From: a virus
IMG/VR virus record: IMGVR_UViG_3300008114_000345
Span: 1-22,230 of that record
Strand: one strand, 5' to 3'
Length of the DNA stretch: 22,230 nucleotides
Numbering within the stretch: position 1 is the first letter of the stretch; every line of letters starts with the position of its first letter. Positions 9,446 through 12,798 of the stretch are shown here, piece by piece. A program made the translations under genes and the position numbers. The notes beneath the pieces were generated by a model that worked only from the letters and a program-made list of their open reading frames with translations, was not told where the DNA came from and did no database searches.

Positions 9446-10429
9446 ATGTCACAATTAACTAGCAATACAACTGCCTTTATTGAGGCACAACAGTATTCAC
9501 AGTTTATTCTTGATAACTTACATGATTTCTTACTACCTGAAGGTATGTGGAGAGATGTATCAGACTTTGGTTCTGGCACTACTTTAAACATCAAAACAGT
9601 TGGTACAGTATCAATTCAAGATGCAGCTGAAGATACACCATTAAACTTTAACCCTATCGACACAGGTACTATCACACTTGCTATCACTGACTACGTTGGT
9701 GACGCATGGAAAGTTAGTGATGACCTCCGTGAAGATGGTGCTCAAGTAGACTCATTAATGTCTATGCGTGCAATGGAATCAACACGTGCTCTTGGTGAAA
9801 ACCATGAATCACGTTTCTTATCAGTAGCTAACGCTGCTCAAACTAACGCTAATGTTAACTTAGTTAACGGCCGTCCACATCGTTGGGTAGCTGGTGGTGC
9901 TTCAGCATCAACACGCGTTATGACATTATCTGACTTCATTGCTATGAAATTAGCATTTGATAAAGCTAATGTTCCTGCAGCAGGTCGTATCGCTATTGTT
10001 GATCCAATCGTTGAAGCAACATTAAATAGCATTCAAAACTTAGTTAACGTATCTAACAACCCAATGTTCGAAGGTATTGTTACAGAAGGTTTTGCTAAAG
10101 ACCATAAATTTGTTAAAAACATCTTTGGTTTCGACATCTGGACTTCTAATCGTTTACCAGTTAAGACAGCTACAGAAGCATTAAACGCTTCTTCATATGG
10201 CTTAGCAAACGATACAGCGGAAATCGGTGACGTAGCTAACGTATTTATGTGCGTATCTGATGACTCAACAAAACCAATCATGCATGCTTGGAGACGTGCT
10301 CCTAAGACTGAAGGTTGGAGAGACAACGAAGAACGTGCTGATAAGTATCAAGTTACTTCTCGTTTCGGTTTTGGTGCCCAACGTGTTGACACACTTGGTG
10401 TTATTTTAACTAGCGGTTCTACATACTAA
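9446..10429 (+). CDS. Major capsid protein
   Basis: A 327-aa protein starting MSQLTSNTTAFIEAQQYS, with AAGGA about 8 nt upstream. The N-terminal region LLPEGMWRDVSDFGSGTTLN (29-48) and TDYVGDAWKVSDDL, RIAIVDPIVEA, and VKNIFGFDIWTSNRLP match the coat protein family of small T7-like aquatic podoviruses (HK97 fold, as known of related proteins). The C-terminus is GFGAQRVDTLGVILTSGS. It forms the icosahedral shell. It follows the scaffold by 12 nt and precedes a structural gene by 10 nt. Its first 18 codons have a diverged copy at 12343-12396. Confidence 0.95.
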   Translation: MSQLTSNTTAFIEAQQYSQFILDNLHDFLLPEGMWRDVSDFGSGTTLNIKTVGTVSIQDAAEDTPLNFNPIDTGTITLAITDYVGDAWKVSDDLREDGAQVDSLMSMRAMESTRALGENHESRFLSVANAAQTNANVNLVNGRPHRWVAGGASASTRVMTLSDFIAMKLAFDKANVPAAGRIAIVDPIVEATLNSIQNLVNVSNNPMFEGIVTEGFAKDHKFVKNIFGFDIWTSNRLPVKTATEALNASSYGLANDTAEIGDVANVFMCVSDDSTKPIMHAWRRAPKTEGWRDNEERADKYQVTSRFGFGAQRVDTLGVILTSGSTY

Positions 10430-11572: not shown

Positions 11573-12343
11573 ATGGCTAAGATGACACTACTTGAGATTG
11601 TACAAGACATTATGTCTGATATGGATTCAGACGAAGTTAACTCTATTAATGATAGCGTTGAATCTCTTCAAGTAGCTCAAATTGTTAAATCATCTTACTA
11701 CAATATTGTAGATGGTAAAGACTATCCATGGTTATATGAATTATTTCAACTAGGTACTAGTGGTACTGTTTCTAGACCTACTCATATGAGATTACCTGAA
11801 ACAATTATAGATCTTAAATGGATTAAATATAATTGTGCTAAATCTGGTGAAACTCGTAATAGATTTACAAAGATTGAATATAAAACTCCTGAAGAGTTCT
11901 TAGATATTACTGATCAAAGATTAAGTACAGATTCTAAGATTACAGTAGTAACCGATTCTACAGGTATTAAGATCAATGTTTATGATGATAGAGCTCCATC
12001 TTATTTTACATCTTTTGATGATGACTATTTAGTATTTGATGCTTATGACTCTGCTGTAGAGTCTAGTTTACAAAATAGTAAGACTCAATGCCATGGTAAA
12101 CGTTCTGTAGTATTTACTCTATCAGATACATTTACTCCAGATCTACCAGTACAAATGTTTACTTATCTACTTAATGAGGCTAAGTCTGCTTCATTCTTAA
12201 CTCTTAAACAATTACCTAATGCTAAGGCAGAACAAATCTCAGTAAGTCAAAAGCGTAAGATGAGTCAAGAAGCTTGGAAGATTAGTAATGGTATTAAATA
12301 TCCTAACTATGGTCGTAAACCTAATTCAAGAGGACGTTACTAA
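11573..12343 (+). CDS. Tail tubular protein A (gp11-like, adaptor/gatekeeper)
   Basis: A 256-aa protein with N-terminus MTLLEIVQDIMSDMDSDEVN (4-23) and SLQVAQIVKSSYYNIVDGKD, the signature of podovirus tail tubular A/adaptor proteins. It has YPWLYELFQL and, near the C-terminus, a basic region (KAEQISVSQKRKMSQEAWK). It joins the portal ring to the nozzle and forms the tail entry. It is longer than T7 gp11 (196 aa). A GGAGT ribosome site precedes the ATG by 6 nt. Its stop TAA overlaps the ATG of the following miniature ORF, whose ribosome site (AAGAGGA) lies within this gene's end. Confidence 0.9.
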   Translation: MAKMTLLEIVQDIMSDMDSDEVNSINDSVESLQVAQIVKSSYYNIVDGKDYPWLYELFQLGTSGTVSRPTHMRLPETIIDLKWIKYNCAKSGETRNRFTKIEYKTPEEFLDITDQRLSTDSKITVVTDSTGIKINVYDDRAPSYFTSFDDDYLVFDAYDSAVESSLQNSKTQCHGKRSVVFTLSDTFTPDLPVQMFTYLLNEAKSASFLTLKQLPNAKAEQISVSQKRKMSQEAWKISNGIKYPNYGRKPNSRGRY

Positions 12344-12486
12344 TGGTAATGCTAACTAGTAATACTCCAGCATTTATTAACTCTCAACAGTACTCGAAAG
12401 GAAAGAAAAATGGCAGAAAAGTGGATTCAAAAAGCAATCAAAAAACCAGGAGCGTTAAGAGAAGCTCTAGGAGTAAAAAAAGGTAA
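12343..12486 (+). other. 47-codon ORF with major-capsid N-terminus echo
   Basis: ATG 12343 opens a 47-codon frame overlapping the tail tube A stop, with AAGAGGA 8 nt or so upstream. Its first 18 residues, MVMLTSNTPAFINSQQYS, align without gap to residues 1-18 of the major capsid protein with 13 identities (M1, L4-T8, A10-I12, Q15-S18). The nucleotide match over codons 4-18 is about 32 of 45, and many of the differences are synonymous. Similarity stops at 12396, just before AAAGGA, the ribosome site of the next gene. From about 12410 the frame is a basic shadow of that gene (KSNQKTRSVKRSS). It is either a relic of a duplicated or recombined capsid start, or a real tiny protein with a capsid-like arm and basic tail. 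I cannot tell from sequence alone. Confidence 0.5.
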
Positions 12487-12589
12487 AACAATTCCAGCAG
12501 CTAAACTTGCAGCTGCAGCTAAGAAACCAGGTAAGATGGGTCAACGTGCTAGATTAGCTCAAACTCTTAAGAAAATGAAAAAGAAATAA
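12410..12589 (+). CDS. 59-aa basic conserved phage protein
   Basis: A 59-aa ORF from ATG 12410 with AAAGGAAAG upstream. MAEKWIQKAIKKPGALREAL (1-20), then GVKKGKTIPAAKLAAAAKKP and GQRARLAQTLKKM, is a phage family I recognise as a widespread small basic protein of unknown role, often found among structural genes. It is strongly basic and helical, with no membrane segment. Its TAA overlaps the next ATG (TAATG). It probably binds nucleic acid or virion components; this is inference. Confidence 0.8.
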   Translation: MAEKWIQKAIKKPGALREALGVKKGKTIPAAKLAAAAKKPGKMGQRARLAQTLKKMKKK

Positions 12590-12798
12590 TGAAGACATAC
12601 ACAACTCCTAACGGAAAAGAAATACAGATCTATAGAGATAAAGTTTCTGCACAATACAAGATTCAGTTTGGTTCTGGTGGTGAATTACCAGAAGAGTTAA
12701 CTGGTATCTTTACTAATGAAGTCTTTGCTGAAACAGCTATTAATAAGTATTTAGAAAAACAAGAAACTAAAAAAGTAAAACTCGAATCTAAGGAGTAG
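12589..12798 (+). CDS. 69-aa hypothetical protein
   Basis: A 69-aa protein, MKTYTTPNGKEIQIYRDKVS, with a beta-rich first half (YKIQFGSGGELPEELTG) and a helical, lysine-rich end. It is coupled to the previous gene by TAATG and followed after 2 nt by tail tube B, whose ribosome site (AAGGAG) lies at its end. No motif or family is recognised beyond its position between the two tail tube genes. Confidence 0.7.
   Translation: MKTYTTPNGKEIQIYRDKVSAQYKIQFGSGGELPEELTGIFTNEVFAETAINKYLEKQETKKVKLESKE

What the first reader, a model, noticed from the sequence alone, without database searches (positions are those of the whole stretch)
12343..12486. Capsid N-terminus echo placed between two tail genes
A 47-codon ORF after tail tube A begins MVMLTSNTPAFINSQQYS and aligns without a gap from its Met to residues 1-18 of the major capsid protein 2.9 kb upstream, with 13 identities. 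Many of the codon differences are synonymous, so the copy diverged under protein-level constraint or comes from a related phage's capsid gene. Similarity ends exactly where the ribosome site of the next gene begins. A good ribosome site precedes the ATG. Two readings: a recombination scar from capsid gene movement, or a functional mini-protein carrying a capsid assembly arm with a basic tail.
Basis: partly seen in the sequence, partly recalled or inferred. Interest (0 to 1): 0.66.

Follow-up and report, generated by a model that had tools for sequence, protein, structure and literature searches.

The report
Capsid-arm copy with basic tail
A family of freshwater and marine phages carries an unannotated tiny gene whose protein starts with a copy of the capsid protein's first 18 residues and ends in a lysine-rich tail, and the copy has evolved in step with one residue of the capsid protein, so it probably plugs into the capsid wall rather than being a genetic scar.

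Summary
It is not a scar. About 84 of 88 distinct relatives in this Zobellviridae-like clade (Methylophilales phage MEP402 gp39 included) carry the ORF at the same tubeA stop/start overlap, with invariant F and Y, purifying selection on the N-terminus (pN/pS 0.31) and a basic, variable tail. About 75 sister-clade loci lack it. No gene conversion: codons at shared residues agree no more than codon usage predicts. Yet the peptide co-evolves with the capsid: its residue -3 (L versus T/N/S) matches MCP body residue 91 (S versus T) in 78 of 79 genomes and 8 of 8 held-out ones. The MCP's own N-tip tracks the same residue, the top column of 1161 screened. Best explanation: a small virion protein that docks on the MCP where the MCP's own N-terminal tip docks and holds a DNA-binding basic tail, working like the microvirus J/VP8 protein. 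Docking is inferred from co-evolution; virion location and DNA binding are untested.

The parts
12343..12486 (+). mini-protein gene (47 aa): MCP-like N-terminal docking peptide plus basic tail
   Evidence: conserved ORF at the same place in about 84 of 88 distinct relatives
12343..12396 (+). codons 1-18, capsid N-tip copy MVMLTSNTPAFINSQQYS
   Evidence: pN/pS 0.31; F and Y invariant in 32 distinct cores; co-varies with the MCP
12397..12483 (+). basic tail KGKKNGRKVDSKSNQKTRSVKRSSRSKKR
   Evidence: K+R 32-61% of tails (median 47%), median D+E 0, net charge of whole protein +6 to +19; sequence and length vary
12330..12334 (+). Shine-Dalgarno-like GAGGA; start codon overlaps the tubeA stop (TAATG)
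   Evidence: start lies -11 to +11 from the tubeA stop in all 66 distinct complete copies; 47 are TAATG
9446..10429 (+). major capsid protein gene
   Evidence: PHROG 267 major head protein, E 1.7e-44; homologue of MEP402 MCP (78%)
9446..9499 (+). MCP N-tip (codons 1-18), the sequence echoed by the mini-protein
   Evidence: conserved across Zobellviridae-like MCPs (N7, F11, E13, Y17, S18 invariant in 60)
9716..9718 (+). codon of MCP residue 91 (S/T), proposed specificity residue of the docking site
   Evidence: partial r 0.944 with residue -3 of both the MCP tip and the mini-protein
11573..12343 (+). tubeA / head-completion adaptor gene, overlapping upstream neighbour
   Evidence: PHROG 7592 tail protein, E 1e-87
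12410..12589 (+). 59-aa basic protein (KK) overlapping the mini-protein tail in another frame
   Evidence: weak sub-threshold match to the Fusellovirus VP2 family (E 0.009)

Best explanation
The ORF encodes a real, selected virion-assembly protein. Its first ~17 residues imitate the N-terminal tip of the MCP and dock on the MCP at the site where the MCP's own tip docks, a site whose specificity depends on MCP residue 91. Its lysine/arginine-rich tail then binds packaged DNA or another acidic partner, so the protein lines or tethers the inside of the head. Shown: a conserved gene under purifying selection, no gene conversion, co-evolution with MCP residue 91. Inferred: physical docking on the MCP, location inside the capsid, DNA binding. 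Likely origin (inferred): one early duplication of the MCP 5' end at the tubeA junction at the base of this clade, followed by free drift of the tail.
For: Same-locus conservation in about 84 of 88 distinct relatives and in isolate MEP402 as gp39. Chance excluded. pN/pS 0.31 for the peptide. F and Y invariant, N-T-x-A-F-[IV] and QY nearly so, tail always basic. Residues -3 and -1 match the genome's own MCP more than shuffled partners (28 representatives, 2.36 versus 1.90 of 3; p<5e-5). Tree-based tests of correlated change: -3 p=9e-5, -1 p=0.03. MCP residue 91 is the top of 1161 columns in MCP, scaffold, portal and tubeA; r=0.944 on a tubeA-only tree with most flanking MCP columns near 0, 6-7 switches each but only 8 jointly; mini -3 versus residue 91 p=5e-4. 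Held-out genomes 8/8; L333/L335 (tip L, T91, mini T) show the mini following the capsid body, not the tip. Same-residue codons agree 53%, against 52% expected from usage.
Against: No structure, proteomics or binding data. Four relatives in the clade lack the gene, so it is dispensable. The MCP's invariant Glu13 is not kept in the copy (N or H instead), so the mimicry is partial. L065 breaks the residue-91 rule. Co-evolution could pass through a third partner. Overlap with tubeA says nothing about copy number.
Confidence: 0.6

Rival explanations
1. The protein binds the scaffold (or portal) through the same peptide the MCP uses, and so is carried into the procapsid as cargo or acts during assembly rather than in the mature shell.
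For: In P22 the coat N-arm (D14, E15, E18) binds the scaffold hook (PMC12005531). A shared peptide would give co-variation with the MCP tip.
Against: The conserved acidic residue of the MCP tip (E13) is lost in the copy. No scaffold or portal column exceeds partial r 0.5, against 0.94 for MCP residue 91.
Confidence: 0.15
2. A decoy: it imitates the MCP tip to occupy a host defence sensor that recognises capsid protein.
For: It tracks the MCP sequence. Host sensors of phage capsid proteins are known (general knowledge).
Against: It follows MCP body residue 91 rather than the tip where they disagree (L165, L333/L335). The basic tail and late-gene position next to tubeA are unexplained.
Confidence: 0.05
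3. A recombination scar or non-functional remnant of the MCP gene.
For: Clade-restricted and clearly related to the MCP 5' end.
Against: Conserved start, frame and peptide over large divergence, pN/pS 0.31, basic tails of many unrelated sequences all kept open, co-evolution.
Confidence: 0.02
4. Repeated gene conversion between the MCP 5' end and this locus keeps the two alike, without shared function.
For: It would give within-genome matching of residues.
Against: Codon identity at shared residues is no higher within a genome (0.531) than between genomes (0.564) or than expected from usage (0.518). Genomes that switched residue also differ at synonymous sites.
Confidence: 0.04
5. A leader ORF whose only role is translational coupling from tubeA to the next gene.
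For: Tight stop/start overlaps with tubeA.
Against: The next gene differs among relatives while the peptide stays. Selection acts on amino acids that match the MCP.
Confidence: 0.04

Closest known systems
Microviridae J protein / VP8 (phiX174, SpV4)
   Same: Tiny, strongly basic protein with one short capsid-docking end anchored by an aromatic residue and a poorly conserved Arg/Lys-rich part that binds DNA inside the shell (PMC11281519).
   Different: Docking end is C-terminal there, N-terminal here; unrelated sequence and capsid fold; not a copy of the coat protein's own terminus; virion presence is proven there, not here.
Phage T4 internal proteins with a capsid targeting sequence (IPII, IPIII)
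   Same: Short conserved N-terminal peptide that brings a protein into the head (PMC9958956); proposed to act likewise here.
   Different: The T4 sequence (~10 aa) is described in IPII and IPIII and not other core proteins, and allows processing by the prohead protease; here the peptide copies the MCP tip and no protease role is known.
Phage P1 DarB N-terminal packaging signal
   Same: N-terminal 30 residues are enough to send a protein to the capsid (PMC9024508).
   Different: DarB is 250 kDa and its signal is not described as a copy of the MCP terminus.
Fusellovirus VP2 (PF25632)
   Same: The neighbouring overlapping KK gene weakly resembles this DNA-binding virion protein family.
   Different: That is the neighbour, not the mini-protein, and the match is below the curated cut-off.

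Membership tests
Zobellviridae-like MCP paralogue | N-terminal 18 residues similar to the MCP | tested here: met
Zobellviridae-like MCP paralogue | HK97-type capsid sequence beyond the N-arm | tested here: not met
   Similarity stops at residue 17-18; the rest is an 18-55 aa basic tail
Microvirus J/VP8 protein | Small protein, strongly basic, with a short conserved end holding invariant aromatics | tested here: met
   33-72 aa, net charge +6 to +19, F and Y invariant
Microvirus J/VP8 protein | Sequence homology to J/VP8 | tested here: not met
   No Pfam, PHROG, NCBIfam or PDB sequence match
Microvirus J/VP8 protein | Bound inside the virion to coat protein and DNA | not testable with these tools
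   Needs cryo-EM or mass spectrometry
T4-type capsid targeting sequence | N-terminal peptide sufficient to bring a foreign protein into the head | not testable with these tools
   Needs a fusion experiment; natural fusions of the peptide to other basic domains (L051, L188, L050) are suggestive
T4-type capsid targeting sequence | Cleavage by prohead protease | not tested
   No protease gene was looked for in detail

The most novel reading that the evidence does not exclude
A tailed phage makes a detached copy of its capsid protein's N-terminal tip that slots into tip-docking sites of the shell (for example sites left empty around the portal vertex, or sites freed on maturation) and tethers the genome through a protamine-like tail: a coat-protein self-mimic, a kind of capsid-lining protein not described in tailed phages as far as I could find.
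Probability: 0.35. Interest if true: 0.78.

Novelty: new variant of a known kind. Interest (0 to 1): 0.63.

Why it matters
It adds a widespread, uncatalogued gene family next to tubeA in aquatic phages. It shows that a very short ORF can carry a testable function, and it points to one capsid residue (MCP 91) as part of the docking site of the MCP's own N-terminal tip. If docking is confirmed, the peptide would be a compact natural tag for placing proteins on or in a tailed-phage head, and an example of a virus copying a piece of its coat protein to furnish its own shell.

Tried and rejected
The MCP profile finds no solved structure by sequence except a weak match (9jwb_A, E 0.023, residues 21-189), which does not cover the N-tip. 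PHROGs, Pfam, NCBIfam and PDB sequence searches with the mini-proteins found no family. tblastn of a 33-aa distant member against annotated phages found nothing. Gene conversion, scar and linkage explanations were tested and rejected. Literature searches found no report of this gene; the MEP401/402 paper has no match for 'small protein' and does not single out gp39 in the passages shown.

Full report
What is there. The window is a 22-kb fragment of a podovirus related to Methylophilales phages MEP401/MEP402 (Zobellviridae): terminase, portal, scaffold, MCP, tubeA (head-completion adaptor) and later tail genes. ORF 12343-12486 starts at the tubeA stop (TAATG), has an SD-like GAGGA, and encodes a 47-aa protein. 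Its first 18 residues match the MCP's first 18 at 13 positions without a gap. Scanning all six frames of the window with MCP residues 1-18, this place scores 62, the next 26; the best of 200 shuffled windows is 38. In MEP401 and MEP402 the corresponding ORF is also the best match to the phage's own MCP tip apart from the MCP (44 and 49, against 31 and 27 for the next place).

Conservation. Eighty MCP relatives were fetched from viral contigs and more with tubeA and peptide queries. After merging identical tubeA ends, 92 regions with a readable MCP tip remained. Four are outgroups without the ORF (CW02, PA11, a Vibrio phage, ICP2). Of the other 88, 79 match the motif directly, and five more have it truncated by the contig end or in divergent form (L048, L058, L127, L149, L153; L153 is cut so short that it is assigned by its start only). 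Four lack it: L063, L067, L097 and MW202697. In the sister clade fetched with the CW02 MCP, none of about 75 loci with a readable MCP tip has a second copy of the tip within the fetched DNA, apart from three chance-level scores of 29-30. So the gene belongs to one clade, with a few losses. MEP402 gp39, annotated 'hypothetical protein', is the isolate copy: LTFTTANTLSFIHKEQYGKKKK... with MCP MAHTTANTTAFIESQQYS.

Anatomy. In 66 distinct complete copies the protein is 33-72 aa; the start lies between -11 and +11 of the tubeA stop (47 are TAATG, 11 use TTG). F and Y are invariant in 32 distinct peptide cores, N-T and A-F-[IV] nearly so. Tails are 32-61% K+R (median 47%), acidic residues are nearly absent, net charge is +6 to +19, and tail sequences and lengths differ widely. 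In L051 and L188 the peptide is fused to a MAIKEYGGKEVYKSK... domain. In L050 the tail resembles the C-terminus of the neighbouring KK protein. The pattern is a fixed N-terminal peptide joined to exchangeable basic tails. The MCP's invariant Glu13 is not kept: 30 of 32 cores have N or H. No Pfam, PHROG or NCBIfam family and no PDB sequence matches.

Selection and origin. Across distinct copies, codons of the peptide have pN 0.20 and pS 0.65 (ratio 0.31), close to the MCP tip (0.24). Between the peptide and its own MCP tip, synonymous differences are near saturation (pS 0.71). At residues shared with the own MCP, codons agree in 53% of cases, against 56% with other genomes' MCPs and 52% expected from codon usage. 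So recent or repeated gene conversion does not explain the likeness. An early duplication of the MCP 5' end is the simplest origin (inference).

Co-evolution. Residues -3 to -1 before the NT motif vary among MCPs (LTS, TTS, NTA, NTT, NTG and others). The peptide matches its own MCP better than shuffled partners: 2.36 versus 1.90 of 3 in 28 representatives (p<5e-5), partial Mantel r 0.59 with tree distance removed. A tree-based test of dependent evolution gives p=9e-5 for position -3 and 0.03 for -1. I then screened 1161 variable columns of MCP body, scaffold, portal, tubeA and peptide for association with MCP residue -3. MCP residue 91 (GDAWKV[S/T]DDL) came first at 0.94; the peptide's own -3 came second at 0.72; nothing else passed 0.5. 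On a tubeA-only tree the value is 0.944 for both the MCP tip and the peptide, while variable MCP columns on either side of residue 91 are mostly near 0, so linkage is not the cause. Six to seven switches occur in each character but only eight in all three jointly. L goes with S91 and T/N/S with T91; peptide versus residue 91 agrees in 78 of 79 genomes. Direct tests: MCP tip-91 p=1.5e-5 (about 0.02 after multiplying by 1161), peptide-91 p=5e-4.

Held-out test. A further scan with the MEP402 tubeA gave 17 distinct loci with MCP sequence not used before, eight with a readable peptide. All eight obey the rule, though some are close relatives of earlier genomes. In L333 and L335 the MCP tip is L but residue 91 is T, and the peptide has T: it follows the capsid body, not the tip. 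L165 (tip S, S91, peptide L) says the same; L065 (T91, peptide L) is the one exception. This favours docking on the MCP body near residue 91 over copying of the tip or a shared partner that reads the tip.

How it most likely works. The protein docks on the MCP with the same peptide that the MCP uses for its own N-terminal tip, and its basic tail reaches into the head and binds DNA. Microvirus J/VP8 proteins work this way, with a conserved aromatic docking end and a variable basic part (PMC11281519). T4 internal proteins and P1 DarB show that short N-terminal peptides can direct proteins into heads (PMC9958956, PMC9024508). It is not a member of those families by sequence. The chief rival is a scaffold-binding role: in P22, acidic N-arm residues of coat contact the scaffold (PMC12005531), but the copy has lost the conserved acidic residue and no scaffold column co-varies comparably.

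Limits. Most sequences are metagenomic contigs, sometimes overlapping. Correlation tests depend on FastTree trees, and the permutation tests do not by themselves correct for ancestry, which is why the tree-based tests were added. Residue 91 was found by screening, so the held-out genomes are the cleaner test. Virion location, copy number, DNA binding and direct MCP binding are untested.

Noticed in passing
window 12410-12589: The overlapping 59-aa basic gene (MAEKWIQKAIKKPGALREALG...) weakly resembles the Fusellovirus VP2 family (PF25632, E 0.009, below cut-off), so it may be another DNA-binding virion protein; it is absent in many relatives that keep the mini-protein.
   Followed up: partly
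L051:8871-9068 and L188 (near 5001): The capsid-tip peptide is fused in frame to a MAIKEYGGKEVYKSKAAMKKHEKKEGKK... basic domain; in L050:4198-4377 it continues into a KK-like C-terminus.
   Followed up: partly
L196 and L228 (contig IMGVR_UViG_3300021961_000065, 74813 bases): One contig holds two different copies of the MCP-tubeA-mini module about 46 kb apart with different sequences; possibly a chimeric assembly of two related phages.
   Followed up: no
L269, after tubeA: A sister-clade phage without the peptide has a lysine-rich ORF (MATAKKATPKKKAPAKKKA...) at the same place, suggesting that small basic proteins recur at this junction.
   Followed up: no
L082 / MW202697: Small structural-region genes are annotated 'flavivirus dead domain' and 'colicin immunity protein', which look like annotation errors; the first is a homologue of window 12589-12798.
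   Followed up: no
L230-L308 (sister clade MCPs): Many sister-clade MCP tips are NRANS-type instead of LTTNT, a second variable tip class not linked to a mini-protein.
   Followed up: no
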